From the NCBI RefSeq assembly GCF_007990755.1, contig NZ_BJXA01000034.1, positions 1 to 64,000 on the forward strand: a stretch of DNA of 64,000 bases, read 5' to 3'. The position numbers and the translations under genes were made by a program. This document shows, in pieces, positions 26,234 to 42,661 of this stretch. How positions within the stretch are numbered: position 1 is the stretch's first letter; every line of letters starts with the position of its first letter. The stretch is from Nocardia ninae NBRC 108245 (GTDB lineage: Bacteria > Actinomycetota > Actinomycetes > Mycobacteriales > Mycobacteriaceae). The notes below the pieces were generated by a model, which was given only the letters and a program-made list of their open reading frames with translations, ran no database searches and was not told the origin of the DNA.

Positions 26234-27451
26234 TCATGACACGAAGCGCGGTGTTCCGGCCCGCGCCCCCGAAACGATCTGCACGATGGCCAGCACCACC
26301 AGCAACACCAGCACAGCGGTCCAGGCATGGGTCAGATCGTGCAGCGCACCGGCCAGCACCGGACCGACCGCGCACAGCGCGAACCCGGCGATCTGACTCA
26401 TCGCAGTCAGCTTCGCGGTCGTCTGCGCATCACGCGCCCGCAGCAGCGGTAAGGAATACCCGATCGCGGTGCCCGCCCCCAACCCCGCACCGAGCAGAAT
26501 CATCCATACGATCGCCCCGCCGGTCGGCGAAATCAACAGTCCCACAAAGGAGATGGCCAACACCGCACCGGTCGATGTCGCAGCCCAGACCTGCCGTTCG
26601 CTCCGGTTCACCACAATGGACATGGCCAGTGCCGAGGGAACGGCAACCAGATTGGCCACCGAGAGCATGCCGCCCGCCCATGAAGCGTCCATGCCCGCAT
26701 CCACGAGAATCGTTGGCAGCCAAGCGGACACGGTGTAGAACAGCAACGCCGGCATGGCGAAGAAGATTGTCACCGCCCAGGCCAGCGGCTGCAACCACAA
26801 GCTGCGCGGCGCGCCCTCGGCCGCGGGACCGGCACCGACATCGCTGCGGACGCGCAACTGAGGCAGCCACACCAGCCACGCGACGACAACGGGCACCGCC
26901 CACAGCCCCAGCGTCGCACGCCAGCCGAGGCCGGTGGCGTCCTGTAGCGGCAGCGTGATTCCGGAGGCCGCGGCCGCCCCGGTGTACAGGGACATGGTGT
27001 AGAGCCCGGTCAGCAGTCCGACATGCCCGGGGTGATCGCGCTTGATCGCAGCTGGAACCAGCACGTTGCCCACGGTGATGGCAAGGCCGATGATCGCGGT
27101 CCCGGCGAACAGCGCCACCACGCCGGGCAGCAGCCGAATCCCGAAGCCCGCCAGCAACACCAGCAGCGCGAAGCCGATCGTGCGGTTGAGCCCCAGCTCG
27201 CGCCCGATCCGCGGCGTAAGGCCGGAAAAGCCCACCCAGCAGGCGATCGGCACCGCCACCAGCAGGCTGGCCACGGTGCTGTTGAATCCCTCCTGCTGCT
27301 GCACCTGCGGCATCAGCGTCGCGATCGCCGTGATGGGCGGCCGCAGATTCAACGCGACCAGCGAGACGCCGACCGCCACCAACCAGATCGGCACCGCCAC
27401 AGCGGATTTGGCCGCGTGCGCCGTAGTGCCATCCTCTGCTTCGGCCCTCAC
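26234..27451 (-). CDS. MFS transporter, CynX/NimT type, last gene of the hydrazine operon
   Basis: 405 aa with about twelve membrane segments, starting IWLVAVGVSLVALNLRPPITAIATLMPQVQQQ, the typical first helix of the CynX/NimT subfamily (cited to show the NLRPxITxxGPL-like motif). The GTG at 27449-27451 overlaps the stop of the AurF-like gene in GTGA, so it is coupled to the operon. Other helices include LNRTIGFALLVLLAGFGIRLLP and SLWLQPLAWAVTIFFAMPALLFY. It is the likely exporter or self-protection pump for the cluster product. The end is 54 bases from the convergent hydrolase gene. Transport direction and substrate are inferred from position. Confidence 0.87.
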   Translation of the reverse strand: MRAEAEDGTTAHAAKSAVAVPIWLVAVGVSLVALNLRPPITAIATLMPQVQQQEGFNSTVASLLVAVPIACWVGFSGLTPRIGRELGLNRTIGFALLVLLAGFGIRLLPGVVALFAGTAIIGLAITVGNVLVPAAIKRDHPGHVGLLTGLYTMSLYTGAAAASGITLPLQDATGLGWRATLGLWAVPVVVAWLVWLPQLRVRSDVGAGPAAEGAPRSLWLQPLAWAVTIFFAMPALLFYTVSAWLPTILVDAGMDASWAGGMLSVANLVAVPSALAMSIVVNRSERQVWAATSTGAVLAISFVGLLISPTGGAIVWMILLGAGLGAGTAIGYSLPLLRARDAQTTAKLTAMSQIAGFALCAVGPVLAGALHDLTHAWTAVLVLLVVLAIVQIVSGARAGTPRFVS

Positions 27452-28452
27452 TGTCCCTCGATCGTCACCGTGGACCAGTCGAACGTGAGCTCCTCGAGAA
27501 TGTCCAGCTCGCTGCAGAACTTGTGCAGCCCACTGAAATTGGACAGCAGCCGCTTGGTCGACGTGTCGTGCTCGACCTCCCGCAGCATCTCGTGCCCGCC
27601 CTCCACACCGACCAGATCGACGATGCGATGCCAGGTGGGGAAGTTGTTCGCGGCGAACGCCTCCAGCCCGTCGACCATCGCCTCCCGGAACAGCGCGCGC
27701 TGCGCCGGACCGAGCCGGTGGTAGACGGCCTTGGCGACCTCGTCGGCGATCGAGGAGTGGCAGTACTCGTCGCGGTTGTGCATGGTCGCGGTGACTTTGT
27801 TGATCGGCTGGATCTCGTCGTCCTCGGCGATCAGGTCGAGGTAGGAGTTGATCGAGATCTCGGCGACCGTGGCGAAGGCGAGGGCGCTGAGCTCGCGCTG
27901 CCAACCCTGCTCGCTCCGTGCCATGCGCTGGCGGAGCCGAGCGGCCTTGTGCCCGAGCGGTAGTGCCGTCTCGGGCATCCGCCAGCCGCGGCGGCGCCGC
28001 ATCACCGAACTCGCATTGAGATGCATGAGGGTGTGGTACTGCTCGTCGAGCATCGCCTGCGTCATGGCGGTGGTCAGCATGTCCATGTCGAGGCCGGTGT
28101 CGAAGGTGTCCTCGATGACCAGGGCGAAGGTCGGATTCACCACGTGCTGCTCGGTGTCCATGATGTGTTTGTTGAAAGCCACCCAGCCCCAGCCGAGCAT
28201 CCGCGCCTTGATGTCGGGGTCCAGCGCACGGTAGGTCGGATGCTCCCGGAACGGGACCAGACCCTCCGGATAATCGGGGCGGGCGGGTTCGAACAGCTCG
28301 TCGAGGTCGGGCTCGGGGCGCTTCACCATCGCGCGCCGATGCCAGTTACCGGTGAGCCTGCTGATCACCGCGTTCTCGACCGGGTCGTCGGGGTCGTGCT
28401 CCGGTAGCGACGGCATGGCAGGACCGCCTCCGGGATATTGCGGCAATGTCAC
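27448..28452 (-). CDS. AurF-type di-iron N-oxygenase
   Basis: 334 aa, GTG at 28450-28452 with GGAGGG seven bases upstream inside the PKS end. All seven iron ligands of AurF (p-aminobenzoate N-oxygenase) appear with near-identical numbering: Glu101 (TEQHVV), Glu137 and His140 (MLDEQYH), Glu198 (TVAEIS), His225, Glu229 and His232 (HNRDEYCH). The family (AurF, CmlI, AzoC) oxidises arylamines to hydroxylamine, nitroso, nitro or azoxy products. No arylamine synthesis gene is nearby, so in this operon the likely substrate nitrogen is that of the hydrazine unit. That would be a new use of the fold and is inference. Coupled to the exporter gene. Confidence 0.9.
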   Translation of the reverse strand: MTLPQYPGGGPAMPSLPEHDPDDPVENAVISRLTGNWHRRAMVKRPEPDLDELFEPARPDYPEGLVPFREHPTYRALDPDIKARMLGWGWVAFNKHIMDTEQHVVNPTFALVIEDTFDTGLDMDMLTTAMTQAMLDEQYHTLMHLNASSVMRRRRGWRMPETALPLGHKAARLRQRMARSEQGWQRELSALAFATVAEISINSYLDLIAEDDEIQPINKVTATMHNRDEYCHSSIADEVAKAVYHRLGPAQRALFREAMVDGLEAFAANNFPTWHRIVDLVGVEGGHEMLREVEHDTSTKRLLSNFSGLHKFCSELDILEELTFDWSTVTIEGQ

Positions 28453-28454
28453 GG

Positions 28455-31400
28455 CTATCCCTCCATTTCTCTCCGGTCACCCGCATCCGGGTGGTCAGCG
28501 ATGATCGCCTCGGCGAGGTCTTCGACGCTGGCGGCGAGCACCGCGCTCGACGAAATCTCGGTTCCCCACCGTTGTTCCAGCCTGGCACGTATCTCGACGG
28601 CGGCCAGCGAGTCACACCCGACGTCGCGCAATGGCCGCCGACGCGGAATCCGTTGCGCCGGAAGGCCGAGTACCGCGCCGAGTTCGGCGGTCAGGGTGTC
28701 CAGCAGGCCGCCACCGTCCGGGACTTCCGGTGCCGGTGGGGCAGGCTGCGCGTAGACCGGTGTGTCCGCTACCGACTCGGCAGGAGTGAACCAGGTACGG
28801 CGCCGTTGCCACGGGTAGGTGGGCATCTCGTCCGGAATGCTGAACGTCGGATAGATCGCGGACCAGTCCGGATCGACACCGGCGGTGTAGAGGCGGGCGA
28901 CGATTTCCGCGAGGCGAGCGGTTTCGGAGGTGTCCCTGCGTAATCCGGCCACCGCCGTACCGGAGGTACTGTCGGCGAGGCATTGCTCGATGGCCTGCAC
29001 CAGCACCGAATGCGGGCTGATCTCGAGGAAAACTGTTGGTCCCAGCGCATTCTCGGCGGCGATCGCGTCGGCGAACCGAACGGTGGACCGCAGGTTGTCG
29101 GCCCAGTACCGCGCGTCGAGATCAGGGCCGGACATGCGCTCACCGGTGACGGTGGACCTGAGCGGCACAGCCACCGGTTCGGCCCGCATCCCGGCGAGCG
29201 CGGTGATCAGCCGCGGTTGCAGCGGATCCATGAACCGGCTGTGCGAGGCGAAGTTGATCCGCACCCGCCCGGCACGCACCCCGGTGTCGCGCAGTTCGGC
29301 GAGTAACCCATCCAGCGCGTCACTTTCGCCGGACAGCACGGTCAGCCGCGGGCTGTTGCGCGCGGCCACCACGAGCCGGTCGCCGTAGCGCGCGGCCGCC
29401 GCCTGTGCCTCGTCGGCAGGCATTGCCACGGCGATCATGCCACCCAGGCCGTCCGCCTGCGACGTGAGTTCGCCTCGGCGACAGATGAGTTCGGCCGCCG
29501 CGCGCAGATCGATGGCCCCGGCGACCGTGGCTGCGGCCACCTCACCGAAGCTGTGCCCGATGACCACAGCGGGCTCGATGCCCCAGGAGCGCCAATGTTG
29601 TGCCAACGCGACCTGCATGGCCCACACGGCCGGTTGGATCACCGCGGTCTTCGCCAGCTCCGCCCCGTCGTCGTCGGCGAGCACCTTCAACAGTGACCAA
29701 CCGGCCGCGGAGTGGATTGCCGCGTCGCAGCTCTCGATCGTGGTGCGGAAGGCGGCCGAGCTGTTCAGCAGCTCGCGGCCCATGCCGACCCACTGGCTGC
29801 CGTGCCCGGGGAAGACGAAGGCGACGCGGACTCCGCCGGTCGGCCGTTGCGTGAGCTCATCGGGAAGTTGGGCGCGTAACGCCTCGGCCAGCCCGTCACC
29901 GTCGAGCGCGGCCACCGCGGTCCGCCATTCGTGATGTGCTCGACCGCGCGCGGCGACGGCACACACCCGCCGCGCCGTGACCGGGTCCTCGCCGTCGAGC
30001 CGGTCCGCGTAGGCGGCTGTAAGCGCCTGTGCCGCATCACGATCGCGCGCAGACAGGGGCAGCACCAAGGGCTGCGGCTCGTCATCGCCGTCCGGTGTCG
30101 AATCGACAGGCGGCGCGGTGAGCACGACGTGCACGTTGGTGCCGGACAGGCCGAACGACGTGACACCGGCGACTGGAGTCGAATCCTCTTGCCACGCAAC
30201 AGGTTCAGTCGGCATCAACAGCGGCGTGTCCGGCTCGAGCAGCACCGGATGTGGCTCGGTCAGCAGCGGATTCGCCGGAACCAGCCGATGATGCAGGCTC
30301 AGCACCGTTTTGATGAATCCCGAGATGCCGGCTGCCCCTTCGGGGTGGCCGATATTGGTCTTCACCGAGCCGACCAGGCAGGGCCGCCCCGCCGGCCGCG
30401 TTCCGGCGAACACTCGGGACAGCGCCCGCAACTCGATGGCGTCACCGGTATTGGTGCCGGTGCCATGGGCTTCCACATAATCCACCGCAGCCGGATCGAT
30501 CCCCGCACGGTCCAGTGCGTCGCGCAGCAGCCGTTCCTGGGCCTCCTGGGCCGGGGCCACCAGCGAACCACCGCCGCTGCCGTCGTTATTGCTCGCACTG
30601 CCCGCGATCACCGCATAGACGCGATCTCCGTCGGCGCGGGCCTGCGCCAACGGTTTGAGCACCACCACGCCGACTCCTTCGGAGCGGACGAAGCCGTCAC
30701 CGCTGGCGTCGCCGAACCGGCAGCGACCCCGCCGCGACATCAACCCGACCTGCTCGTAGATGGCGGCCAGTTCGGGCAGCAGCACCAGATTCGCCCCGGC
30801 GGCCAGTGCCAGGTCCGAATCCCCGAGTTGCAAGCTCTGCCAGGCTAAATGCACCGCGGTGAGCGACGACGAGCACGCCGTGTCGACCGAGACGCTGGGG
30901 CCACGCAGGTCCAGCGCGAACGAGATGCGGCCGGACAGGAACGAGGGCAGCCCGCCGCCGGTCAGCGCGTGCAGGTCGAGTGCACTCTGCCGGGCCTGCA
31001 ATTCCCAATAGTCCCGGCCCATCTGCCCGACGAACACGCCGGTGCGCGTGCCTGCCAGCGCGGTCGGCGGAATCCCGGCGTCCTCCAAGGCCTCCCAGGC
31101 CACCTCCAGCAGCAGCCGCTGCTGCGGGTCCATCCGGTCGGCCTCTCGGGGCGAGATACCGAAGAAGGCGGCGTCGAAACCCTCGACGTCGTCGAGGAAT
31201 CCGCCGAAGCGGCGAAATCCGGACGGCACCGCGGGCAGCCGGCCGAACACGGCGGGGTGCTCGGTGCGCCGCTCCGGTACCTCGGTCACCGCGTCCACGC
31301 CGTCGACGAGCAGCCGCCAGAGTGCTTGCGGGTCATCGGCTCCCGGCAAGCGGCAGCCGATGCCGACGACGGCCACCGGTTCGATGCGCCCGCGTCGGAC

Positions 31401-32174
31401 GGGCTCCGGGACAGCGGCCGAACGTGGCCGGTCGACCGGCGGCAGGAAGCGGCGCAGCTCGGCGGTGACCATCCTGGTCAGCTCGCGGCGATGGGTCCGG
31501 ACGAAGAAATGGCCGCCCGACAATACGCGCGTCCGTACGGCCCCATCGGTGAGTTCACCCCATGCGTCGGCATCGTCCGGTGCCGCCAGGGTGTCGTCCC
31601 GGCCGCTGAACACCACGATCGGGCACTCCACCGGCGCGGCGGACCGATGTTGGTAGGTGGAGAACATCGTGACGTCCGCGCGCAACGCGGGCAGCGCCGC
31701 GCGCAGCAGATCGCGCTCATCGCGCAATTCGGCTGGGGTGCCGCCCATCTCGAAGATCCGGTCGAGCAGCTCGTCGTCGGGCAGTTCGTGCATGGGGTCT
31801 TGGGTGAGCCGGTGCGCTGCGGCCAGACCCGCCACCAGCAGGCCGACCGGGGCGGGTGCGCCGGCGCGGTGCAGCCGCAGCGCCACCTGGTATGCCAGCA
31901 GGCCGCCCAGGCTGTGCCCGAACAGCGCGAAGGGCGCGTCGAGATGCGGACGGAGCGCGTCGACGACCGCGTCGGCCAAGGCGTCCAGATCGGCCAGCGG
32001 CGGCTCGCCCGCGCGTTCCTCCCGTCCGGGCAGCAGTACCGGCAGCACGTCGACCCAACCCGGCAGCTCTTGATGCCAGCCACGGAAAACCGATGCGCCG
32101 CCGCCGGAATGCGGGAAGCAGAACAGCCGCACCCGCGCCGAGCGGCGGGGCGGCCGCGACAGGAACGCACTCAT
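28455..32174 (-). CDS. Type I PKS module with N-terminal thioesterase (TE-KS-AT-ACP)
   Basis: 1239 aa. Domains in order: thioesterase of type II class (about 15-245; FCFPHSGGG, Ser88 in GHSLGG, His222 in GGHFF); ketosynthase (265-690; Cys434 in DTACSSS, His570 in EAHGTGT, His610 in NIGHPEG); acyltransferase (785-1085; FPGHGSQW, Ser874 in GHSFGE, specificity motif FASH at 975-978); ACP (1155-1225; Ser1189 in GCDSLAA). KR, DH and ER are absent, so one condensation would leave a beta-keto group. FASH resembles the YASH motif of methylmalonyl-specific domains, but this is not decisive. A TE placed before the KS is unusual. ATG start overlaps the stop of the dehydrogenase-like gene. Likely extends a carrier-bound hydrazine-derived starter once. 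Confidence 0.95.
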   Translation of the reverse strand: MSAFLSRPPRRSARVRLFCFPHSGGGASVFRGWHQELPGWVDVLPVLLPGREERAGEPPLADLDALADAVVDALRPHLDAPFALFGHSLGGLLAYQVALRLHRAGAPAPVGLLVAGLAAAHRLTQDPMHELPDDELLDRIFEMGGTPAELRDERDLLRAALPALRADVTMFSTYQHRSAAPVECPIVVFSGRDDTLAAPDDADAWGELTDGAVRTRVLSGGHFFVRTHRRELTRMVTAELRRFLPPVDRPRSAAVPEPVRRGRIEPVAVVGIGCRLPGADDPQALWRLLVDGVDAVTEVPERRTEHPAVFGRLPAVPSGFRRFGGFLDDVEGFDAAFFGISPREADRMDPQQRLLLEVAWEALEDAGIPPTALAGTRTGVFVGQMGRDYWELQARQSALDLHALTGGGLPSFLSGRISFALDLRGPSVSVDTACSSSLTAVHLAWQSLQLGDSDLALAAGANLVLLPELAAIYEQVGLMSRRGRCRFGDASGDGFVRSEGVGVVVLKPLAQARADGDRVYAVIAGSASNNDGSGGGSLVAPAQEAQERLLRDALDRAGIDPAAVDYVEAHGTGTNTGDAIELRALSRVFAGTRPAGRPCLVGSVKTNIGHPEGAAGISGFIKTVLSLHHRLVPANPLLTEPHPVLLEPDTPLLMPTEPVAWQEDSTPVAGVTSFGLSGTNVHVVLTAPPVDSTPDGDDEPQPLVLPLSARDRDAAQALTAAYADRLDGEDPVTARRVCAVAARGRAHHEWRTAVAALDGDGLAEALRAQLPDELTQRPTGGVRVAFVFPGHGSQWVGMGRELLNSSAAFRTTIESCDAAIHSAAGWSLLKVLADDDGAELAKTAVIQPAVWAMQVALAQHWRSWGIEPAVVIGHSFGEVAAATVAGAIDLRAAAELICRRGELTSQADGLGGMIAVAMPADEAQAAAARYGDRLVVAARNSPRLTVLSGESDALDGLLAELRDTGVRAGRVRINFASHSRFMDPLQPRLITALAGMRAEPVAVPLRSTVTGERMSGPDLDARYWADNLRSTVRFADAIAAENALGPTVFLEISPHSVLVQAIEQCLADSTSGTAVAGLRRDTSETARLAEIVARLYTAGVDPDWSAIYPTFSIPDEMPTYPWQRRRTWFTPAESVADTPVYAQPAPPAPEVPDGGGLLDTLTAELGAVLGLPAQRIPRRRPLRDVGCDSLAAVEIRARLEQRWGTEISSSAVLAASVEDLAEAIIADHPDAGDRREMEG

Positions 32175-33346
32175 TTCGCCCGCCCCCGGCCGCCCAGCGA
32201 GCCCGCGATGATCAGCTTCTGCACCTCGGAGGTGCCCTCGTAGATCCGCAGTGACCGGATCTGCCGGTACAGCCGCTCCGGCACGCTGTCGGCGACCAGT
32301 CCCGCGGCACCGAAGACCTGCACGCAGGCGTCCACGATGTGTTGCGCGTGTTCGGTGGCGTACAGCTTGGCGATGCTGGAGTGTTTCGCCGCCGCCGGAT
32401 CGCCGCGGTCGGCCTCCCAGGCGGCGCGGGCCACCAGCAAGGCCGCGGCGTTCAGCTCCACCTCGATCTCCGCGAACGTCGCCTTCACCAGTTGCAGGTC
32501 GAACTGCCGGCCGCCGTACATCGACCGGTTCTTCGCGTGGGTCAGCGCGGCGTCGGTGGCCCGGCGCGCGAACCCGATTGCCGCGGCGCCCACGGTCATT
32601 CGAAACCGTTCGAGTACCTCCATCGCGATCACGAAACCGCCGCCAGGTCTGCCGAGCACGCTGTCGTGCGGCAGATGGCAGTCCACGAACTCGAGACCGG
32701 CGAAGGATCGGGGAGCGATCAGCGGAACTCGTTGCCCCACCGTCAGTCCCGGGGTGTTCGCGGGCACCAGGAACGCCGTCAAGCCCAGTGCGCCCGGACC
32801 CTCGCCGGTTCGCGCGATGACGCAGAACAGGTCTGCGATACCGCCGTTGGCGATCCAGGCCTTCTTACCGTTCAGCACATAGCCGTCGGCAACCCGCTCG
32901 GCACGCAAGCCGATCGCGGCGACGTCCGAGCCGACCTCCGGTTCGGAGATGGCGAACGCGCCGCACAGGGTGCCTTTCGCCATCGGCGCCAGATACCGCC
33001 GCTGCTGTTCTTCGTTGCCGTGCCGCACGATCGGCGTCGCGGCCAGGGCCTGGATCGAGAAGGCGAAGTCGGCGAGATCGTCGGCGTAGGCCAGCGCCTC
33101 GCGCAGCAGGCACAGTGAGCGGCAGTCGCCTGCCGCCAGGCCCGCGGGCCCCGCAGCGGGATCCAGCGCCGCCAGCCAGCCGTGTTCGCCCAGTGCCCGC
33201 AGAATCCGCAGCCCGGTCGCATCGGGATCGGCCGGGTCGTCCCACAGCTCGCTGTGCTCGGCGCACCAGCTCTCGATCTGCCTCGCGCGCTCTACATGTC
33301 GCGGCTCGTAGAAGGGGAGGGCGAGGATGCCCGCATCGAAGCTCAT
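32171..33346 (-). CDS. Acyl-CoA dehydrogenase-family oxidase
   Basis: 391 aa flavoprotein. ATG at 33344-33346 overlaps the upstream stop by four bases. Family features: GAFAISEPEVGSDVAAIGLRAE (FAD-binding loop, about 133), YVLNGKKAWIANGGIADLF, RFRMTVGAAAIGFARRATDAAL, and the C-terminal IYEGTSEVQKLIIA in which the Glu of EGTSE is the usual catalytic base. In hydrazinoacetate pathways a relative acts on the carrier-bound acyl hydrazine and removes two hydrogens to give a hydrazone or azo group. That is the probable role here, by context. Otherwise it could desaturate a polyketide chain. Confidence 0.92.
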   Translation of the reverse strand: MSFDAGILALPFYEPRHVERARQIESWCAEHSELWDDPADPDATGLRILRALGEHGWLAALDPAAGPAGLAAGDCRSLCLLREALAYADDLADFAFSIQALAATPIVRHGNEEQQRRYLAPMAKGTLCGAFAISEPEVGSDVAAIGLRAERVADGYVLNGKKAWIANGGIADLFCVIARTGEGPGALGLTAFLVPANTPGLTVGQRVPLIAPRSFAGLEFVDCHLPHDSVLGRPGGGFVIAMEVLERFRMTVGAAAIGFARRATDAALTHAKNRSMYGGRQFDLQLVKATFAEIEVELNAAALLVARAAWEADRGDPAAAKHSSIAKLYATEHAQHIVDACVQVFGAAGLVADSVPERLYRQIRSLRIYEGTSEVQKLIIAGSLGGRGRAK

Positions 33347-34395
33347 CGTTGCTCCTGGGACAGCGTGAAGATTTCGGTGGCGTGCGCCGCGGGGTCGCCC
33401 GGCCGCAGGTACAGCCGGCCGCGACCCGGACAGAGCACGACGGCGGCGACGGTGCGCTCGCGACGGATATCGCCGTTGTCCGTGACGTTGATCGGCGGCG
33501 CGGACAGCACGGCGAAATGGTCCTCCGGATCGGCGGGCACGGTGGCGAGCCGGCTCCGGCACTGCTCGAGCCTGCGGACCGACGAATTGCGGGCGAACAC
33601 GTTGATCTCGTCCCGGGGTGCGAGGTCGGGATGCAGGAAATGATTGGTGTGCGCGGTATTCAGGCTGTACTCGACCCGGAAATCCGAGTCGAGCACCTCG
33701 ACATAGGCGGCAGTGTCCTTGTCGCACAAGACGATGTTGCGCGAACTCGCCAGCGGCAGCTTCCGCAACACGCGCACCGCTTCCTCGACGGTGCCCGCGT
33801 TGTCGAGTAGATGCCGGATGGCGAGGTAGGGCGGCACACCCGGATGCCACTGGCCGCCCAGCACGAGATTCAACCCGACCGCGAGCCCGTCGCTGTTGAG
33901 GCCGAGGTAGCCGAGCAGTCCGCCGAAACTGAGCACGAGAACGCGCCGGGACGTCCCGGCACGCACGATCTCCAGCACACTGATCTGATCGTCCAGATTG
34001 CCATTGAGATCAACGGTCTGTGCCAGCACGGGTTCGGCACCGGCCAGTGCGTACGTGGTGCAGTCTCCGGCGGTCGGAATTTTCTGGTAGCCGAGGATTT
34101 CACGGCGTAGTTGCAGCAACGCGGCCTCGTACGGGTCGATATTCGCCCCGGTGGCGAGACCGCGGATCTCTTCGGCCAGATCCGGTGTCGCAGCGGTGAT
34201 CTCGGCCAGATAGGCGTCGATCGTCGGCCGTAACTCCGCGAGTGACACCGGCTCGGGCAGGATCCGGTTCAACCGGCATAGTCCGTCGTCCAGGAAGGCC
34301 CGCAGGTCGGCGGCTCTGGCCTGGCCGTGCTGATAGCCGAGGGCGAAGGAATCCCCCTCGGCTCGGACGAACGGAGTCCGCAGGACCGCGCTCAT
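33343..34395 (-). CDS. C45-family Ntn-hydrolase/acyltransferase (isopenicillin-N acyltransferase-like)
   Basis: 350 aa. ATG at 34393-34395 overlaps the GNAT stop. The N-terminal helix region FALGYQHGQARAADLRAFLD and the segment AGDCTTYALAG with Cys112 fit the C45 family. In that family the proprotein cuts itself just before this Cys, which becomes the N-terminal nucleophile (Cys103 in fungal IAT). Further family strands are VLAQTVDLNGNLDD, GLLGYLGLNSDGLAVGLN and YLAIRHLLDNAGTVEEAV. It could remove the acyl group put on by the GNAT enzyme or transfer an acyl group to an amine. The role within the cluster is inference. Intact, no signal peptide. Confidence 0.85.
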   Translation of the reverse strand: MSAVLRTPFVRAEGDSFALGYQHGQARAADLRAFLDDGLCRLNRILPEPVSLAELRPTIDAYLAEITAATPDLAEEIRGLATGANIDPYEAALLQLRREILGYQKIPTAGDCTTYALAGAEPVLAQTVDLNGNLDDQISVLEIVRAGTSRRVLVLSFGGLLGYLGLNSDGLAVGLNLVLGGQWHPGVPPYLAIRHLLDNAGTVEEAVRVLRKLPLASSRNIVLCDKDTAAYVEVLDSDFRVEYSLNTAHTNHFLHPDLAPRDEINVFARNSSVRRLEQCRSRLATVPADPEDHFAVLSAPPINVTDNGDIRRERTVAAVVLCPGRGRLYLRPGDPAAHATEIFTLSQEQR

Positions 34396-35006: not shown

Positions 35007-35007
35007 G

Positions 35008-35268
35008 TCAGACCGCACTTTCGGAGTGCCGGGACAGCGCGGCCGTCACATCGCGCAGGGTACGCATGGCAGCCACGTCCTCCTCGGTGAAGCTCGCCAG
35101 CGAGATGCCCGTGTCGTCGCAGACCGCGGTCAGGAACAGGACCTTGTTCAGCGAGGTGAGGCCGTAGTCGTCGACCATGTCGAGGTCCGGATCGAGTTCA
35201 CCGGGTGCGTTGTTCGACGCGATCACCTTCCGGAAGTTGTCGTGCACGGCCTTTTCCAGATCAGGCAT
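35008..35268 (-). CDS. Free-standing acyl/peptidyl carrier protein
   Basis: 86 aa. The phosphopantetheine site is Ser39 in YGLTSLNKV; acidic helices surround it (LEKAVHDNFRKVI, TEEDVAAMRTLRDVTAAL). ATG at 35266-35268 overlaps the ligase gene by eight bases, so ligase and carrier are made together. It should carry the unit activated by the adjacent ligase, most simply hydrazinoacetate, through acylation and oxidation before transfer to the PKS. No phosphopantetheinyl transferase gene is present in the window. Confidence 0.92.
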   Translation of the reverse strand: MPDLEKAVHDNFRKVIASNNAPGELDPDLDMVDDYGLTSLNKVLFLTAVCDDTGISLASFTEEDVAAMRTLRDVTAALSRHSESAV

Positions 35269-36748
35269 GTGTTCTTCCTTTCTCGCCGATTTCCCGTCGA
35301 TACTGTTCGAGGATCTGCCGACGTTTCGGTTTGTATTGCGAACTGAGCAGCCCGTTTTCGATGCTGAACCGGGGCTCGGCGATCACCACTCTGGCGATGC
35401 GCTCATCGCGTTCGAGCTCCTGATTGGTTCGTTCGAGGTGTTCGGTGATCGCCGCTGTATCGGCGGGTTCGCTGGTCGGCGAGACGACCGCGACGAGTTG
35501 GGTCTGCGTCGGGCAGAACAGCACGCAGTGCTCGATCGCCGCACTCGCGGCCATACGCTCCTCGATCGGCCGGACGATGACCTTCTTGCCGTTCGCCAAT
35601 ACGATCACGTCGTCGGCGCGACCCTGGATATACAGAAAGCCATCGTCGTCCAGGTAACCGATATCGCCGGTCCGGACCGTGCCGTCCGCGGCGAACGCGC
35701 CCATCGAATGCGCGGTCGCGCCGTACTCGTACCGCCGCGCCACCGGGAAAGCGCTGCGCACACTGATGGCTCCGTCGGCGTCGAACAGCACCTCTTTGCC
35801 GGGCACGACGCGTCCGACGCTGCCTTCCTTGCTCGCGCCCGGATAGTTCTTGGCGACAATGCAGGTCTCGTTCATGCCGTAGCCCTCGTAGATGGGCAGG
35901 CCCAGGTTCGTGAAGAAACGCAGCATGTCCGGGCCGGCCGGCGCGGAACCGGTCCACAGGTACCGGATTCGATCGCCGAACATCTCCTTGGCCGCCACCT
36001 GCGGATCGGTCTGTGCCGCCAGATGCCGTTTCACGGTCTCGTAGAAGCCCGGCACTCCCATCACTACGGTGGGTCGCACCTGTCGCATTACCGTGAACGC
36101 CGCTTCGTAGGTGCTGACCGTGACGTCGTGGCCGAAACACAGCGCCGAGTAGATCCAGTACCGCTGCTGCAACAGAGCCAGTGGCAGGAACACGAACAGG
36201 TGGTCGCCGGGGCCGTGCGCGAACATTGCTTGGACGGCGCGCAGTGAGCTGTCGATGCTACCGACGCTGGCCGCCAAGCCTTTCGGCACGCCGGTGCTGC
36301 CTGAGGTGAACTTGAGGGTCGTCGCCTCTTCGCTGTAGTACCGGACCTCGGGCAGGGGGTCGGCCGGTTGTTCGGCGAGCACGCGCGCCTCGCTGATCGG
36401 CCGGACACCGGCGGCGGTGGACGGCTGATCGGTGAACAGCAGTTTCAGGTCGTAGCGGGCGAGCAGCGCCTCGTCGGGCTCGAACTTGCCGGGCTCGAGC
36501 CCCGCGGTCACTGCTTTGCACCGCAGCGCGGCCAGATCGAGCAGCACCCATTCCAGGCAGTTCGCAGCGAGGATGCCGATCCGATCCCCTTGCCCCACAC
36601 CCAATTCGCGGAGCCGAACCGCCAGGCGTTCGGCACCGGCAGCCAGTTCGCGCAGTTCGATAGATTCCGTCTTGCCCAGCCGCGCGAAGGTGGCGTGGTA
36701 GCCGGCCGGGGGCGGCGTCGCGACGATCTGGTTGATCACCGAATCCAT
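35261..36748 (-). CDS. Acyl-AMP ligase (ANL superfamily)
   Basis: 495 aa. Core motifs are complete: A3 LKFTSGSTGVPKG (about 163), A5 YEGYGMNETC (about 300), A7 RTGDIGYLDDDG (about 370), and A10 SSQYKPKRRQI with the catalytic Lys near the C-terminus. The start MDSVINQIVATPP lies at an ATG sharing one base with the stop of the fusion-gene (TGATG). It should adenylate a carboxylic acid and load it on the carrier protein encoded next. Hydrazinoacetic acid is the best candidate from context. Shorter than long-chain acyl ligases and without a fused carrier domain. Confidence 0.9.
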   Translation of the reverse strand: MDSVINQIVATPPPAGYHATFARLGKTESIELRELAAGAERLAVRLRELGVGQGDRIGILAANCLEWVLLDLAALRCKAVTAGLEPGKFEPDEALLARYDLKLLFTDQPSTAAGVRPISEARVLAEQPADPLPEVRYYSEEATTLKFTSGSTGVPKGLAASVGSIDSSLRAVQAMFAHGPGDHLFVFLPLALLQQRYWIYSALCFGHDVTVSTYEAAFTVMRQVRPTVVMGVPGFYETVKRHLAAQTDPQVAAKEMFGDRIRYLWTGSAPAGPDMLRFFTNLGLPIYEGYGMNETCIVAKNYPGASKEGSVGRVVPGKEVLFDADGAISVRSAFPVARRYEYGATAHSMGAFAADGTVRTGDIGYLDDDGFLYIQGRADDVIVLANGKKVIVRPIEERMAASAAIEHCVLFCPTQTQLVAVVSPTSEPADTAAITEHLERTNQELERDERIARVVIAEPRFSIENGLLSSQYKPKRRQILEQYRREIGEKGRTHA

Positions 36749-38763
36749 CAAGCGCTCCCCACCCCGACCGGCTCCGCGGCCTCGACCGATGGTTCGGCGA
36801 AGAACTCGCGCACCAGGTCGACCCGGGTTCCGGCAGGCACGAGTTCCACGGTGTGCGGCCATTCGTTCGGGCGCTCCTCGCCGAGGGCTGCGCCGAGCCG
36901 CCCGGCGAACCGGGGCAGCAGCGGTGTGGCGCAGTGGGCGAGCAACCGGGCTGCGGCGAGTTCTAGCGCCACTGCGGTGCGGGCCTCGTCGTGCCACTCC
37001 TCGGCCGTTGCCACGGCGCTTTCCTGGTCGACGAATCGGCGTGTGTCGGTGACGATTCCGTGCAGCTCTGCGGCCGCGACCTCGAGCGAGAACCCGTCCG
37101 GCCCGAGAGCGGCGGTCACCGCGGACAGTCGCGCGCCCAGCCGACCGAGGAATGCCGTGTGCTCCGGGGTCCAGATGCCGGCGTCCGGGGCGTGGCCGCC
37201 GTATCGCGTCTGGATGCGGTGTCCCAGGTCGTTGAGCCACTGCTGCCAGGTACCGATCAGTTCGTCGCGTACTGCGGCCGTATAGCTTTCGCGAGTGAAG
37301 TTGGTGCGCCTCGACTCCGGCCGCGTCCGGGACAGGAAATAGCGCACCCCGTCCACGCTGTCCGGCGTCAGGATTTCCTTGCCCCAGACGGCATGCCGTC
37401 GGCTGGTGGAGAATTTGCCGCCGTCCAGGAGATAGAACTCGTTGACGTGGTAGTCGATATCCGGCTGCCAGTCGGGGAAGGCCAGCCGGTACAGCACGGG
37501 ATACAGGATCGAGTGGTAGAAGCTGTTGTCGTAGCCGAAGAAGTGCACGATCTTCCAGTCCTGCTCGGGCTCGTCCGCCCGCCAGTTCCGGCCGAGGCGA
37601 CGGCCCAGCGCCGAAATGCTGTGCAGGAAGCCGTAAGACATCTCCGGCCAGACCCAGATGACCTGCCTCTCCACGTCGGGCTCGGCGGGCGGCACACCCC
37701 AGTTCGCGGGGTGGGTCATTGCCACGTCGAGTCGTGGGCGAGCGAACAATCGGCCGGCCAGTTCGCGCAGCCGCGCCGGAACGCGGCCCAACCGGTGATG
37801 TGCCGCGAGTTCGGTGGCGAACTCGTGCAGCGGAAGGGTGAACCTGGTGATCGTGTCGATTCGCGGGGTCTCCTGCGAGAGCTTCGACTGCGGATCGGCC
37901 AGATCGACACAGGAATTGGGCTCGCCGCAGCCCTCGCAGATATTTCCGCCGGTTACGGCGCCGCAGCCGGGGCAGCCGCCCGTCACGTCGGCCTCGTACA
38001 GGTAGTCGCGCGTCGTGGCGTCGAAGAGCGCTTTACCTTCTTGCGGCGCAATGGATCCCGACTTCACGAGGCGGGAGAAGTACGCCTGCAATCCGGCGCG
38101 GTAGGTGGGCTCCCTGTCGGTCACCGTGTACTGGTCGGGCTCGATGTCCATCAGCCGCAGCGTTTCGGCGATCTCGGCGCTGTAGTACGCCGCCGTCGCG
38201 GCGGGGTCCTTGCCCTCGCGCCTGGACCGTTCGACCACGTAGCTCTGATAGTCGTCGCTGCCGGTGAGGTGCCAGGCCTGCGCACCGTTCATCCGCTGGA
38301 ATCGGACGAAGACATCCGCCCCCAGATACGGGCCGGACAGATGCCCGAGATGCAGATCCCCATTGGGAGTCGGCGGCGTCGAGAACACGAAGATCGGCCG
38401 CTCGCCGAAACGCCGCCGGTCGCTGCGTCCGGTCGCCGCGCGGGCGGCTCGGCTCGGATCGCGCCAGTACAGGTCGAAGAACACCAGCTCGGTGGACCCG
38501 GTGTTCTCGACGACGTGCGTCTCGAACGGATCGAACAGCACGGCCATGCCCGGGGCGACGGGATGCCGCCCGCCGTCCACTATGACGTCGCCGTGCCCGC
38601 TGACCACCAGGAACAGCTCGGTCTCGTCGTGCTGGTGCGGATCGGACCGGCTACCGGCCGGGACCCGGGCCCAGCCTGCGCCGAAGCCGAATCCGTCGAT
38701 CGAACTCATGTCGATGCCGAATGCGGAGTGCAGTTCGGCCGTGTCGAAACGATTGATGATCAC
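36748..38763 (-). CDS. Cupin-methionyl-tRNA-synthetase-like fusion, N-N bond-forming hydrazine synthetase
   Basis: 671 aa. GTG at 38761-38763 overlaps the oxidase stop (GTGA). Residues 1-105 are a cupin with ligands His43, His45, Glu49 and His83. Residues 120-670 are a class I synthetase of MetRS type: HLGH at 138-141, four-Cys zinc knuckle (C264, C267, C276, C279), KFSTS at 450-454 in place of KMSKS, and a helical C-domain. This exact fusion is known from Spb40-type enzymes. There the synthetase half activates glycine and esterifies N6-hydroxylysine, and the metal-bound cupin half drives rearrangement to the N-N bond. Gene order with hydroxylase and oxidase supports that role. Amino-acid choice (Gly versus another) cannot be read from sequence. 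Confidence 0.93.
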   Translation of the reverse strand: MIINRFDTAELHSAFGIDMSSIDGFGFGAGWARVPAGSRSDPHQHDETELFLVVSGHGDVIVDGGRHPVAPGMAVLFDPFETHVVENTGSTELVFFDLYWRDPSRAARAATGRSDRRRFGERPIFVFSTPPTPNGDLHLGHLSGPYLGADVFVRFQRMNGAQAWHLTGSDDYQSYVVERSRREGKDPAATAAYYSAEIAETLRLMDIEPDQYTVTDREPTYRAGLQAYFSRLVKSGSIAPQEGKALFDATTRDYLYEADVTGGCPGCGAVTGGNICEGCGEPNSCVDLADPQSKLSQETPRIDTITRFTLPLHEFATELAAHHRLGRVPARLRELAGRLFARPRLDVAMTHPANWGVPPAEPDVERQVIWVWPEMSYGFLHSISALGRRLGRNWRADEPEQDWKIVHFFGYDNSFYHSILYPVLYRLAFPDWQPDIDYHVNEFYLLDGGKFSTSRRHAVWGKEILTPDSVDGVRYFLSRTRPESRRTNFTRESYTAAVRDELIGTWQQWLNDLGHRIQTRYGGHAPDAGIWTPEHTAFLGRLGARLSAVTAALGPDGFSLEVAAAELHGIVTDTRRFVDQESAVATAEEWHDEARTAVALELAAARLLAHCATPLLPRFAGRLGAALGEERPNEWPHTVELVPAGTRVDLVREFFAEPSVEAAEPVGVGSA

Positions 38764-39836
38764 GCGGGACTCATCTCCTTCGGTGGCTGAGTTGTCTCCC
38801 CGTCCAGTTGCAGCAGGCCGACGGCCTCGGCCGCGATCGCCGGGGCGAGCCGGTAGCCCGAACCGTTGGCGGCACCGGCGAAGATCACCCGTCCGGCCGG
38901 GTCGAGCGTGCGCACCTGTGGCTCCCGATCGGCGCTGTAGGCGTCGCAGAACACGCGGCCGCCTGCGGCGCGTTCGGCCAGTGCGGGTGAGTACCGGTGC
39001 AGCAGGGGCAGGGCCGCGTCGAGAACTTTTTCGTCGAGCCCGTCGGACACGGTGTCGGGGTCGACATCCCACTCCTGGTGGGTGTAGCTGAACAACCAGT
39101 GCCTGCTGTGGCGCAGCGGCAGCAGGAAGGCGTCTTCGTCCTGGAACACGATGACGCCGTCGTCGCGCCTCGGCTCCTGTTCGATGTGGATCGCGGCGAC
39201 CTTCTTGACGCGCGCGTGCAGGGGGGCGACGAGGTCGCGCCATGCTGGATCGGCCAGCCAGGGGCCGGGGGCCAGCACCACGCGTCCGGCCGTGCATGTC
39301 TTGCCGGTGCTGAGCCGGATCAGCACCTCGGAGCCCGCGTCTTCGACGGCGGTGACGCGCACGCCTTCCCGGAAGGTGACGTGCGGACGCAGTTCGCGGG
39401 CCACCGCCTGCGCGACCGCGGGTACGTCGGCGTAGTGGCATCCGTTGCCGTGCCAGGCGCGGGCGCCCTGAGTCAACCGGATGTCCGCGGGCACCGCTTC
39501 CGTCGGTGTCAGTGCGGCACGGTCGAGATAGACCTCATTCAGTTGGGCAGCGGTCGCTGTCGCCACCACGGTCATGCCGAGCGAATGTATCGGCAGGGCA
39601 GGATGTTTCGCGGCGAGGTCTTCGTAGAAATCGTGGCTGTACGCGGTCATCTGCCGCACTCGGTCGGTTGCGCCGCGCGGGAAATGCAGACCTGCGGAGC
39701 GTCTGCTGGCCCCGGTGCCGATCCCATCCCGGTCGAACACCACGACGGGGGTATCGGGGGCGCGTGAAATCACCTCGCGCGCAACGAGACAACCGACGAT
39801 GCCCGCGCCCACGACGGCGACGGTGTTGTTCGTCAT
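38760..39836 (-). CDS. FAD-dependent amine/D-amino-acid oxidase-like protein
   Basis: 358 aa. N-terminal dinucleotide motif VAVVGAGIVGCLVAREV (about 6-22) and DAO-fold features: GIGTGASRRSAGLHFPRG, VVLAPGPWL, and C-terminal VIFAGAANGSGYRLAPAIA (FAD-binding end). ATG at 39834-39836 overlaps the hydroxylase stop, and the frame's end overlaps the fusion gene's GTG. In the known pathway an enzyme of this type (Spb39/Tri27-like; numbering from memory) oxidatively cleaves the lysine-glycine hydrazine adduct to hydrazinoacetic acid and 2-aminoadipate semialdehyde. A glycine-oxidase-like role on another amine is the main alternative. Confidence 0.9.
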   Translation of the reverse strand: MTNNTVAVVGAGIVGCLVAREVISRAPDTPVVVFDRDGIGTGASRRSAGLHFPRGATDRVRQMTAYSHDFYEDLAAKHPALPIHSLGMTVVATATAAQLNEVYLDRAALTPTEAVPADIRLTQGARAWHGNGCHYADVPAVAQAVARELRPHVTFREGVRVTAVEDAGSEVLIRLSTGKTCTAGRVVLAPGPWLADPAWRDLVAPLHARVKKVAAIHIEQEPRRDDGVIVFQDEDAFLLPLRHSRHWLFSYTHQEWDVDPDTVSDGLDEKVLDAALPLLHRYSPALAERAAGGRVFCDAYSADREPQVRTLDPAGRVIFAGAANGSGYRLAPAIAAEAVGLLQLDGETTQPPKEMSPA

Positions 39837-41152
39837 CGCTCTACGCTCCGGTCGTCGGGAGCCTTGGCCGACCATTCGAGAAACGAATCGTGCGGGTCGT
39901 CGGAGCGGATGCCGCGCAGGCGATCGGCTATCCGTTTGCTGCGCCAGGCGACGAGGCTCAGATTGGCGTCGGCCAGGCCGCGCTGTCGGCGGGCGCCGTT
40001 CTGCAGGAAAATGTTTCGGTCGGCGGGGCCGTCCCAGCACACGGCGAAATCCGAGTCGATTTTGTATTCGTCGCGGTCGCGCTCCAGCCGGTCCGCGACG
40101 GGGGACAGGAACTCCATGTCGTCGGCGTGGAAACCGGTCGCCCAGACGATCACATCCGCCTCGGCATGCTCGTCCACACCAGGTTGGTCGTTGTGCGTGA
40201 AGGTGATGTCCCAGCCCGAGTCGGGGTCGCCGGACACGCCCAGCACGTCGCGGTTCGGGTACAGGGCGACCAGATCGGTGGCACCGTCGACGAAGTGGTG
40301 CAGGTAGATGCGCTGGTAGATCTCGCGCAGCGTCGCCTCGGAGATGCCGTCGCTGGTCAGCACATGGGCGGCGTTGAGCACGTCCCGGGACGCGCCGGGT
40401 AAGCCGGCGAAGTACTCCGAGTAGCCCGGCATGTATAAGTCGTTCGTGAACGGCGAGTCGTCCAACGGAAAGTAGTTGCGGCGCCGGGATATCCAGCCGA
40501 CCCGGCGCGGCAGTTCGCTGCGCGGACGGGAGATCAGCTCGAGAAATGCTTCCGCGCCGGACTGGCCGCCGCCGATCACCCACACTCGTCGTCCCGCGAG
40601 TCCGACTGCCTTGTCAGCGAATTCGCTGATATGGAACTGGGTCGGCCCGAGCAGTTTTTCGGCCACCGGCGGAACATAAGGTTTGCGGCCGACCCCGATA
40701 ACGACGTTGTCGGCCTTCACCGCGCGGTTGCCGGTGCGTAGCAGGAAGACGTCATCGAATTCTATGGAACGGACCTCTTCGCCGAAAATCAGGTTCTCGT
40801 TCTTCGAGCTGACCCATTCGAGGTAGTTTCGGAATTCGCTGCGCGGCACCGCATCGAATTGCGCGTTGAGATAGTGGTAGACCCGGCCCTGAGCATGGAG
40901 ATAGGACAGGAAAGAGAAGCGGTTTGTCGGGTCGGAGAGGCTGACCAGGTCCTTGAGCATGGAGACCTGGAGCGAGGTGTTGGGGAGGAGTTGCCCGTCG
41001 TGCCAACGGAAGTCGCGCCGCTTCTCGAAGAAACAGTTCGACACGTCAGGCTGTTCGTACAGTAATGAGGCCAGGCTCAAGTTTGCTGGTCCGATACCGA
41101 TTCCCACGCATCGGTAATGTTCACAATTGTCGGTGGGCGAGCTCCGGCTCAT
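39833..41152 (-). CDS. L-lysine N6-hydroxylase (IucD/SidA-type flavin monooxygenase)
   Basis: 439 aa, ATG at 41150-41152 with AGGAGG four to five bases upstream, the best ribosome site of the operon. FAD motif GIGIGPANLSLASLL (17-31), FHWH-like FRWHDGQLLPNTSLQVSMLKD, NADPH motif VWVIGGGQSGAEAF (about 189), and the family's VIVWATGFH and C-terminal ANLSLVAWRS. Such enzymes hydroxylate the side-chain amine of lysine or ornithine. No siderophore synthetase is nearby; the neighbours instead form the hydrazine set, so it should supply N6-hydroxylysine. First gene of the operon. Confidence 0.93.
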   Translation of the reverse strand: MSRSSPTDNCEHYRCVGIGIGPANLSLASLLYEQPDVSNCFFEKRRDFRWHDGQLLPNTSLQVSMLKDLVSLSDPTNRFSFLSYLHAQGRVYHYLNAQFDAVPRSEFRNYLEWVSSKNENLIFGEEVRSIEFDDVFLLRTGNRAVKADNVVIGVGRKPYVPPVAEKLLGPTQFHISEFADKAVGLAGRRVWVIGGGQSGAEAFLELISRPRSELPRRVGWISRRRNYFPLDDSPFTNDLYMPGYSEYFAGLPGASRDVLNAAHVLTSDGISEATLREIYQRIYLHHFVDGATDLVALYPNRDVLGVSGDPDSGWDITFTHNDQPGVDEHAEADVIVWATGFHADDMEFLSPVADRLERDRDEYKIDSDFAVCWDGPADRNIFLQNGARRQRGLADANLSLVAWRSKRIADRLRGIRSDDPHDSFLEWSAKAPDDRSVER

Positions 41153-41632: not shown

Positions 41633-42661
41633 TTACGCGGAGAAGGCGCCGCGGGTGTGCTGCTCGAGCCGCTGTGCCAGGCGTTGCAGGTCCTGGGAGC
41701 GCCGTCGGGCGAGCTCGGCGACGCGCGGCGCGCAGTGACTCGGAACATTGCCGACGACGTCGTCCCATTCGATGTCGTCATCGAACGGAAACTCCAGCCA
41801 CCGCAGCAGTTTTCGCCCTGTTTCGGAGAAACGCAGCGACGGATCCTTGCGCAGCTGCTGCAGCATCTCCGCTGTGATCACCCGCTGCGGGGCCGGAGTT
41901 CGGGTATCGGACCGCTCGGCGGGTTCGGGTGTAGCCGTCGAACGCCGCGCCGAGCGGCGCAGCGGCACCGGATTCTCGCCACTGTGCAGCCGTTTGCGCA
42001 CATCCTTGGCGGTGGTGACCGAGATGCCCGCTGCCACAGCCACTTTCCGCACCGACGCGGTGGGGTCGGCGGTGAACATCTCGGCGGCGCGTTGGCGGCC
42101 CTGCGGTCCGGACCGGTGCCGCACACCGTTGCGAGCGATCCGACCGGTCGACTGTGGAACTTCCACAGTCGACCGCTTGCGGATGGCGGAGACGGTCTTG
42201 GGCGAAACACCCGCGATGGCGGCGATCGCTCGATCCGACCAGTCCGGATACGACATCAGGATCCGGAGCGCGGCGGCCTTCCGCTCGGCCAGCGACAGCG
42301 GCAGGCCGTGCGCCGTATTGAGCTTGACCGCCAGCACGAACGCTTCCTCGGGACCGCCCTCGAAAAACACTGCGGCGATGGTCTTTTCGCCACGCAGCCG
42401 AGCCGCACACAGTCGATGCCAGCCGTCGACAACCTGCATCGTCGCGCGGCGCACCACAATCGGCGCCAGCGCGGTCGTCGACTCGGCGAGTATGCGGGTG
42501 TGATCGGTGTTCTCGCCCGCCGACCGTGGCGGCGAATCCGACGGCAGTAGCTCGCTGATCGGCAGTTCGACAATCTTCGAACAGTACGACGGCGAGCCCG
42601 TGAAGTTCGGTGCGGATAGGGTTCCCGCCCGGACGGAACCGACATTGCCCCCACTGGTCAT
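41633..42661 (-). CDS. StrR/ParB-like pathway-specific transcriptional regulator
   Basis: 342 aa, ATG at 42659-42661 with GGGAGGGG upstream. A ParB/Srx-like N-domain (VELPISELLPSDSPPRSAGENTDHTRILAES, then APIVVRRATMQVVDGWHRLCAARLRGE) is followed by a helix-turn-helix DWSDRAIAAIAGVSPKTVSAIRKR (about 139-162) and a second HTH-like segment VRKVAVAAGISVTTAKDVRKR. This is the architecture of StrR-type activators of antibiotic clusters, not of chromosome-partition ParB, which would have a partner ParA. It lies immediately upstream of the hydrazine operon and in the same direction, and carries a StrR-like site inside its own gene. Probable activator of the cluster. Confidence 0.85.
   Translation of the reverse strand: MTSGGNVGSVRAGTLSAPNFTGSPSYCSKIVELPISELLPSDSPPRSAGENTDHTRILAESTTALAPIVVRRATMQVVDGWHRLCAARLRGEKTIAAVFFEGGPEEAFVLAVKLNTAHGLPLSLAERKAAALRILMSYPDWSDRAIAAIAGVSPKTVSAIRKRSTVEVPQSTGRIARNGVRHRSGPQGRQRAAEMFTADPTASVRKVAVAAGISVTTAKDVRKRLHSGENPVPLRRSARRSTATPEPAERSDTRTPAPQRVITAEMLQQLRKDPSLRFSETGRKLLRWLEFPFDDDIEWDDVVGNVPSHCAPRVAELARRRSQDLQRLAQRLEQHTRGAFSA
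42145..42175. promoter_or_regulatory. Perfect StrR-type palindrome inside the regulator gene
   Basis: A 31-bp perfect palindrome with 15-bp arms (CGGTCGACTGTGGAA and its complement) around one central C. Its outer parts are GGTCGACTG and CAGTCGACC separated by exactly 11 bases. The StrR consensus, as I recall it, is GTTCGACTG-N11-CAGTCGAAC, so spacing and all but one base per half agree. It encodes the STVEVPQST segment of the regulator. Likely an autoregulatory binding site. Confidence 0.7.

What the first reader, a model, noticed from the sequence alone, without database searches (positions are those of the whole stretch)
26234..42661. Candidate new N-N bond biosynthetic system: hydrazinoacetate genes combined with an AurF oxygenase and a one-module PKS
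The sequence shows a lysine N6-hydroxylase, FAD oxidase and cupin-MetRS fusion in one operon, followed by ligase, carrier protein, GNAT, C45 hydrolase, acyl-CoA-dehydrogenase-like enzyme, TE-KS-AT-ACP PKS, AurF-type oxygenase and exporter. The first three are established as the hydrazinoacetic-acid machinery of s56-p1 and triacsin. The downstream set differs from what I know of those pathways: only one PKS module, no nitrite-forming enzymes, and an added di-iron N-oxygenase. The inferred logic is: make hydrazinoacetate, load it on the carrier, protect the distal nitrogen, oxidise, extend by one C2/C3 unit, N-oxygenate and export. The product could be an azoxy, azo, hydrazone or diazo compound.
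Basis: partly seen in the sequence, partly recalled or inferred. Interest (0 to 1): 0.95.

Follow-up and report, generated by a model that had tools for sequence, protein, structure and literature searches.

The report
Known Nocardia diazoacetone gene cluster (dob)

Summary
In detail: twelve genes on the minus strand (26234-42661) encode a regulator, lysine N6-hydroxylase, FAD oxidase, cupin-MetRS fusion, AMP-ligase, carrier protein, GNAT, C45 hydrolase, acyl-CoA-dehydrogenase-like enzyme, TE-KS-AT-ACP PKS, AurF-type di-iron enzyme and MFS transporter. It is not new: the set is the dob cluster of Pfeifer et al., Nature 2026 (PMC13061610), worked out in Nocardia ninae, in a heterologous host and with enzyme assays; N. 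tenerifensis also makes the products. The N. tenerifensis draft has all 12 genes at 78-92% identity, in the window's order on two contigs that break inside dob2. The AurF-type protein has all seven published Dob3 active-site residues at the published numbers and groups with N. tenerifensis Dob3. The product is therefore most probably 4-diazo-3-oxobutanoic acid, decarboxylating to diazoacetone; the 'AurF N-oxygenase' most likely oxidises a hydrazone to a diazo group. The window's genome also holds a second hydrazone cluster (contig C100), fitting the paper's statement that N. ninae has two. A rearranged dob-like cluster occurs outside Nocardia (L008/L049). Already known; interest low.

The parts
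41633..42661 (-). dob1: predicted transcriptional regulator
   Evidence: Pfam HTH_23 4e-6; orthologue upstream of dobG in 4 of 4 other Nocardia dob clusters, 72-96%; no PDB relative at E 0.001; the paper names Dob1 a regulator
39833..41152 (-). dobG: L-lysine N6-hydroxylase
   Evidence: Pfam Lys_Orn_oxgnase 8e-91; 88% to N. tenerifensis; N. ninae DobG shown active
38760..39836 (-). dobF: FAD-dependent oxidase, would release hydrazinoacetic acid
   Evidence: Pfam DAO 9e-32; 79% to N. tenerifensis; role by homology only
36748..38763 (-). dobE: cupin-MetRS fusion that forms the N-N bond between N6-hydroxylysine and glycine
   Evidence: Pfam Cupin_2 and tRNA-synt_1g; HLGH and KFSTS motifs; 86% to N. 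tenerifensis; N. ninae DobE shown in E. coli biotransformation, not in vitro
35261..36748 (-). dobC: adenylating ligase that loads succinyl-hydrazinoacetate on the carrier
   Evidence: Pfam AMP-binding 2e-44; 86% to N. tenerifensis
35008..35268 (-). dobQ: stand-alone carrier protein
   Evidence: GLTS motif; sub-cutoff acyl carrier protein hit; 85% to N. tenerifensis
34392..35006 (-). dobB: GNAT, succinylates hydrazinoacetate
   Evidence: Pfam Acetyltransf_3 2e-21; 92% to N. tenerifensis
33343..34395 (-). dobA: C45-family hydrolase that removes the succinyl group
   Evidence: NCBIfam C45_proenzyme above cut-off; GDCTT motif; 85% to N. tenerifensis
32171..33346 (-). dobM: acyl-CoA-dehydrogenase-like FAD enzyme, hydrazine to hydrazone
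   Evidence: Pfam Acyl-CoA_dh_1 2e-40; 91% to N. tenerifensis
28455..32174 (-). dob2: one-module type I PKS (TE-KS-AT-ACP), adds one malonyl-derived C2 unit
   Evidence: Pfam Thioesterase, ketoacyl-synt, Acyl_transf_1, PP-binding; active-site motifs intact and the same as in the two N. tenerifensis pieces
27448..28452 (-). dob3: ferritin-like di-iron oxidase, hydrazone to diazo
   Evidence: Pfam AurF 1e-51; E101, E137, H140, E198, H225, E229, H232 at the published numbers; clade with N. tenerifensis Dob3
26234..27451 (-). dob4: MFS transporter, putative exporter
   Evidence: Pfam MFS_1 1e-15; 88% to N. tenerifensis

Best explanation
The region is the dob biosynthetic gene cluster of Nocardia. 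DobG makes N6-hydroxylysine; DobE (cupin-MetRS) joins it to glycine through an N-N bond; DobF frees hydrazinoacetic acid; DobB succinylates it; DobC loads it on the carrier DobQ; DobM oxidises it and DobA removes the succinyl group, leaving an alpha-hydrazonoacetyl thioester; the one-module PKS Dob2 adds a malonyl-derived C2 unit, giving 4-hydrazono-3-oxobutanoic acid; the di-iron enzyme Dob3 oxidises the hydrazone to the diazo group of 4-diazo-3-oxobutanoic acid, which decarboxylates to diazoacetone; Dob4 probably exports and Dob1 regulates. Others showed most of these steps for the N. ninae enzymes; DobF rests on homology, Dob1 and Dob4 on prediction, and whether Dob3 acts before or after release from Dob2 is open. 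That the copy in this window does the same is inferred from gene content, order, identity and active-site residues.
For: The 12 genes match the 12 that the paper names. N. tenerifensis, in whose medium the authors found both products, has all 12 at 78-92%: dob1 to residue 689 of dob2 on one contig, dob2 from residue 730 with dob3 and dob4 on another, each in the window's order. Seven of seven Dob3 active-site residues lie at the published numbers. Identity to CmlI is 48% and to AurF 34% over the aligned parts; the paper gives 47% and 31%. In a tree of 13 FDOs, six Dob3 proteins form a clade (98/99) without CmlI, AurF and five FDOs near which no hydrazone-forming gene was found. Of 150 Nocardia genomes, the 5 with Dob3 at 87% or more (own genome included) all carry DobE at 85% or more.
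Against: No N. ninae sequence was available by name and the paper's figure of the cluster is not held, so the comparison with the characterised strain is indirect and its gene order was not seen. The AT motif is FASH, nearer to the methylmalonyl-type signature (meaning recalled); but antiSMASH also predicted methylmalonyl for the published Dob2, which used malonyl-CoA, and N. tenerifensis has the same FASH. CmlI and AurF share all seven residues, so these alone do not tell a diazo-forming from a nitro-forming enzyme. Production by this strain is not shown.
Confidence: 0.95

Rival explanations
1. A new pathway in which the AurF-type enzyme oxygenates nitrogen to an azoxy, nitro or N-hydroxy product, as CmlI and AurF do with arylamines.
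For: Pfam and NCBIfam name AurF; the only PDB relatives by sequence are 5hyg/5hyh (CmlI) and AurF chains; all seven active-site residues are shared with them.
Against: 86-98% identical to Dob3 of four other Nocardia dob clusters, one in a published producer, in a supported clade apart from CmlI and AurF. The two Nocardia FDOs at 49-52% lie in other surroundings; one was seen beside a PabA/PabB-type gene, as expected of an arylamine route.
Confidence: 0.02
2. A dob-type cluster whose product differs slightly, for example by a methylmalonyl-derived C3 unit.
For: FASH motif in the AT domain.
Against: N. tenerifensis, which makes the malonyl-derived product, has the same motif; malonyl-CoA worked in the published cascade.
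Confidence: 0.03

Closest known systems
dob cluster of Nocardia ninae and N. tenerifensis (Pfeifer et al., Nature 2026, PMC13061610)
   Same: The same 12 genes with the same predicted functions, the same PKS domains, and the numbered active-site residues of Dob3; gene order the same as in the N. tenerifensis draft.
   Different: Nothing of substance found. The strain is unnamed here; it may be N. ninae itself or a close relative.
Azaserine cluster (aza/azs)
   Same: Hydrazinoacetate and carrier-bound hydrazone machinery (abstract of PMC10445470).
   Different: Azaserine uses NRPS proteins that acylate serine (abstract) and its cluster lacks a ferritin-like di-iron oxidase. Here a one-module PKS and Dob3 stand instead.
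Triacsin cluster
   Same: Homologous hydrazone-forming enzymes, as the paper states.
   Different: Triacsin uses several PKS modules and nitrite-forming genes (recalled); neither is among the 12 genes here.
s56-p1 cluster
   Same: Hydrazinoacetate-forming enzymes (relation stated in the paper; spb38-40 recalled).
   Different: Its downstream part is peptide-type (recalled); here a PKS and an FDO follow.
CmlI and AurF arylamine N-oxygenases
   Same: Protein family, seven active-site residues, 48% and 34% identity.
   Different: Outside the Dob3 clade; different substrate and reaction.

Membership tests
dob diazo cluster | Hydrazone-forming set DobG, F, E, C, Q, B, A, M | tested here: met
   Seven of eight found by family search above cut-off and DobQ by a sub-cutoff hit and motif; all eight by identity to N. 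tenerifensis, 79-92%
dob diazo cluster | One-module type I PKS with TE, KS, AT and ACP, catalytic motifs intact | tested here: met
   Pfam domains; motifs
dob diazo cluster | Ferritin-like di-iron enzyme Dob3 with E101, E137, H140, E198, H225, E229, H232 | tested here: met
   Seven of seven at the published numbers; in one clade with N. tenerifensis Dob3
dob diazo cluster | Regulator Dob1 and MFS transporter Dob4 | tested here: met
dob diazo cluster | Production of 4-diazo-3-oxobutanoic acid and diazoacetone | not testable with these tools
   Shown by others for N. ninae, N. tenerifensis and a heterologous host
Triacsin cluster | Nitrite-forming enzymes and several PKS modules (recalled) | tested here: not met
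   One PKS module; no such enzyme among the Pfam hits of the 12 genes
Azaserine cluster | NRPS proteins that acylate serine | tested here: not met
   No condensation or heterocyclisation domain among the Pfam hits of the 12 genes
Arylamine N-oxygenase (CmlI/AurF function) | Groups with CmlI or AurF, in a cluster with an arylamine pathway | tested here: not met
   Outside the Dob3 clade lie CmlI and AurF; no chorismate or PABA gene among the 12; NCBIfam AurF model 198 bits against a cut-off of 620. Substrate not testable here

The most novel reading that the evidence does not exclude
The window's own cluster is dob, but the same genome carries a second hydrazone cluster (contig C100) with an FAAL-type ligase, a distant ferritin-like di-iron protein and a haem-oxygenase-like protein, so one strain would run two hydrazone-to-diazo (or other N-oxidised) lines from hydrazinoacetate, the second with a different oxidase pair and an unknown product. 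The paper's survey already has FDO and HDO among its cluster types (figure legend), so the architecture itself is probably catalogued.
Probability: 0.3. Interest if true: 0.4.

Novelty: already known. Interest (0 to 1): 0.15.

Why it matters
Dob3 is, according to its discoverers, the first biosynthetic enzyme known to make a diazo group by oxidising a hydrazone, and diazoacetone is a useful carbene donor, so the system itself matters. This window adds little: an independent confirmation that genes read blind from raw sequence lead to the published pathway, and two small extensions, a rearranged dob-like cluster outside Nocardia and a second hydrazone cluster with FDO and HDO genes in the same genome.

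Tried and rejected
Rejected: a new N-N system (synteny with a characterised cluster); an azoxy or nitro product (clade and surroundings of Dob3); a longer cluster that takes in the TetR and alpha/beta-hydrolase genes at 24526-26179. Those two lie beside dob in N. suismassiliense but were not found in the 8.8 kb held downstream of dob4 in N. colli, N. pseudobrasiliensis and YIM 96095; for N. tenerifensis only 0.6 kb is held there, so it says nothing.

Led nowhere: naming the strain. No named N. ninae record turned up; the scan may leave out the window's own genome, and a paper search for N. ninae together with N. suismassiliense found none. YIM 96095 is not in the taxonomy under that name. No PDB relative of dob1 or of the C100 haem-oxygenase-like protein at E 0.001. 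No structure was predicted.

Limits and dropped rows: gene starts are my choice from overlaps and homology. The Dob3 tree left out the weak FDO matches in G098 and G102 (28-40%) and was made before the four matches at 49-53%. CmlI and AurF entered it as the aligned stretches only, and the program marked both as long branches; in the DobG tree it warned that several long branches meet. The distant DobG homologues were labelled 'siderophore_like?' by me without a test. The PDB calls 5hyg 'uncharacterized'; that it is CmlI rests on the paper's use of 5HYH. L014 and L063 were fetched; L014 was not studied, and in L063 no gene was called. Supplementary Table 6 and Supplementary Fig. 8 of the paper (the 14 further Nocardia strains; nin) and all its figures were not readable here. 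PMC10445470: outline and abstract only.
Full report
OBSERVATION. The finding's gene list is correct. Family searches and gene boundaries give twelve genes on the minus strand from 42661 down to 26234: regulator, lysine N6-hydroxylase, FAD oxidase, cupin-MetRS fusion, AMP-ligase, carrier protein, GNAT, C45 hydrolase, acyl-CoA-dehydrogenase-like enzyme, TE-KS-AT-ACP PKS, AurF-type di-iron protein, MFS transporter. From the lysine hydroxylase on, neighbours overlap by 1-8 bases or are 1-2 bases apart, so eleven genes look like one transcription unit (inference). The catalytic motifs of the PKS are present: TE GHSLGG, KS DTACSSS, HGTGT and NIGH, AT GHSFGE, ACP GCDSL (meaning of motifs recalled).

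WHAT IT IS. A full-text search for diazo, Nocardia and hydrazinoacetic acid brought up Pfeifer, Van Cura, Wu and Balskus, Nature 2026 (PMC13061610; also held as a 2025 preprint). I read its abstract, its sections 6-10, 26, 30, 60 and 67, and passages elsewhere; figures and supplements were not readable. It describes the dob cluster of Nocardia ninae: DobG, E, F, B, C, Q, M, A, the type I PKS Dob2 with TE, KS, AT and ACP, the ferritin-like di-iron enzyme Dob3, the regulator Dob1 and the MFS transporter Dob4: the same twelve as in the window. The products are 4-diazo-3-oxobutanoic acid and diazoacetone. The authors report the cluster in 14 further Nocardia strains.

TESTS OF IDENTITY. (a) Synteny with a published producer: the N. 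tenerifensis draft has dob1, dobG, F, E, C, Q, B, A, M and dob2 up to residue 689 on one contig (L047), and dob2 from residue 730, dob3 and dob4 on another (L006), each in the window's order, at 78-92% protein identity. N. suismassiliense (94-99.5%), N. colli (80-94%) and N. pseudobrasiliensis (72-92%) have the whole set in the same order. (b) Dob3: the paper's E101, E137, H140, E198, H225, E229 and H232 are all at exactly these numbers in the window protein. They are also at the aligned places in the other 12 FDOs, CmlI and AurF among them, so they show the family, not the reaction. Identity is 48% to CmlI and 34% to AurF over the aligned parts; the paper gives 47% and 31%. (c) Tree of 13 FDOs: the window protein, four other Nocardia proteins and the YIM 96095 one form a clade with support 98/99, without CmlI, AurF and five other FDOs. 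Near those five no hydrazone-forming gene was found in the stretches held (18-21 kb each), only distant KS relatives of Dob2 in two of them. (d) Co-occurrence: of 150 Nocardia genomes, 9 have any Dob3 match and 5 have one at 87% or more; these 5 are among the 10 of 150 with a DobE match at E 1e-80 or better, theirs at 85% or more. (e) DobG: eleven lysine hydroxylases from clusters with a cupin-MetRS gene form one clade (100/100), apart from ten more distant homologues. One of the ten, L030 in G131 (38%), lies beside a distant DobE-like gene (35%) and falls just outside.

HOW IT WORKS. Shown by others for the N. ninae enzymes: DobG makes N6-hydroxylysine; DobE, in E. coli cells, joins it to glycine; DobB succinylates hydrazinoacetic acid; DobC loads it on DobQ; DobM oxidises and DobA removes the succinyl group; Dob2 extends with malonyl-CoA, seen only in a coupled assay with Dob3; Dob3 oxidises the hydrazone to the diazo group. 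Removing dob3 from the heterologously expressed cluster abolished both products. The native redox partner of Dob3 and whether it acts before or after release from Dob2 are open. DobF, Dob1 and Dob4 rest on homology or prediction. For the window's copy all steps are inferred. The AT motif FASH, which resembles the methylmalonyl signature (recalled), does not argue for another product: N. tenerifensis has the same motif, and antiSMASH predicted methylmalonyl for the published Dob2 too, although malonyl-CoA served.

WHICH STRAIN. The paper says that N. ninae has two candidate clusters, dob and nin, both with hydrazone-forming genes and an additional oxidoreductase. The window's genome has a second hydrazone cluster on contig C100, and of the five dob-bearing Nocardia genomes it alone has two DobE matches. 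This makes N. ninae or a close relative likely, but no named record was seen, and the Dob3 residue numbers do not tell it from N. suismassiliense, whose Dob3 is 98% identical. Against it: the left end of C100 carries a PKS KR-ACP fragment, while the paper says that only dob encodes a PKS consistent with the products.

SIDE RESULTS. In Nocardiopsaceae YIM 96095 (L008, L049) eleven of the twelve dob genes were found, at 45-68% identity; dob1 was not (E 0.001). There dobM lies upstream of dobG, an amidohydrolase gene lies on the other strand between dobA and dob2, and an AlaDh/PNT-like gene lies between dobG and dobM. The parts of the paper that I read name dob only in Nocardia. Among 394 genomes drawn from the class, 6 have a Dob3 match at E 1e-90 or better: the own genome, one at 67% whose coordinates are those of the YIM 96095 match, and four at 49-53%; of 200 genomes drawn from that strain's family, only itself.

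VERDICT. Novelty: already known. Interest 0.15.

Noticed in passing
G000 contig C100 (L012 50-19181): A second hydrazone cluster in the window's own genome: PKS KR-ACP fragment at the contig edge, MmgE/PrpD, FAAL-type AMP ligase, a weak transglutaminase-like hit under its cut-off, a distant AurF-type FDO, a haem-oxygenase-like protein, then dobM-G-F-E-C-Q-B-A homologues at 49-70%. FAAL to dobA is conserved in G074 and G137, and most of it in G066. It may be the paper's nin cluster, whose gene content I did not see.
   Followed up: partly
L008 and L049 (Nocardiopsaceae YIM 96095): A dob-like cluster outside Nocardia with dobM moved, an amidohydrolase gene on the other strand and an AlaDh/PNT-like gene added; dob1 not found.
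   Followed up: partly
L009 and L010 (Streptomyces NRRL S-350, S. novaecaesareae): Dob3-like FDOs at 60-62% with no hydrazone-forming gene in the stretch held; in L009 the neighbours include a 2OG-Fe dioxygenase, a berberine-bridge-type FAD enzyme and ATP-grasp enzymes (L010 neighbours not scanned): an unassigned pathway.
   Followed up: partly
L011 (Streptomyces CBMA291): FDO at 53% to Dob3 beside a TauD-type dioxygenase and, further off, an ATP-grasp-like gene; no hydrazone-forming gene in the stretch held.
   Followed up: partly
G131 C1 532828-536165 (L030, L061): Distant DobE-like (35%) and DobG-like (38%) genes side by side in another Nocardia, next to the DobG clade in the tree; the DobE-like match holds one in-frame stop.
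   Followed up: no
window 11063-11860: ORF with only the N-terminal and part of the central domain of a TPP enzyme, so the gene looks truncated; an FMN-dependent dehydrogenase lies nearby at 13312-14418.
   Followed up: no
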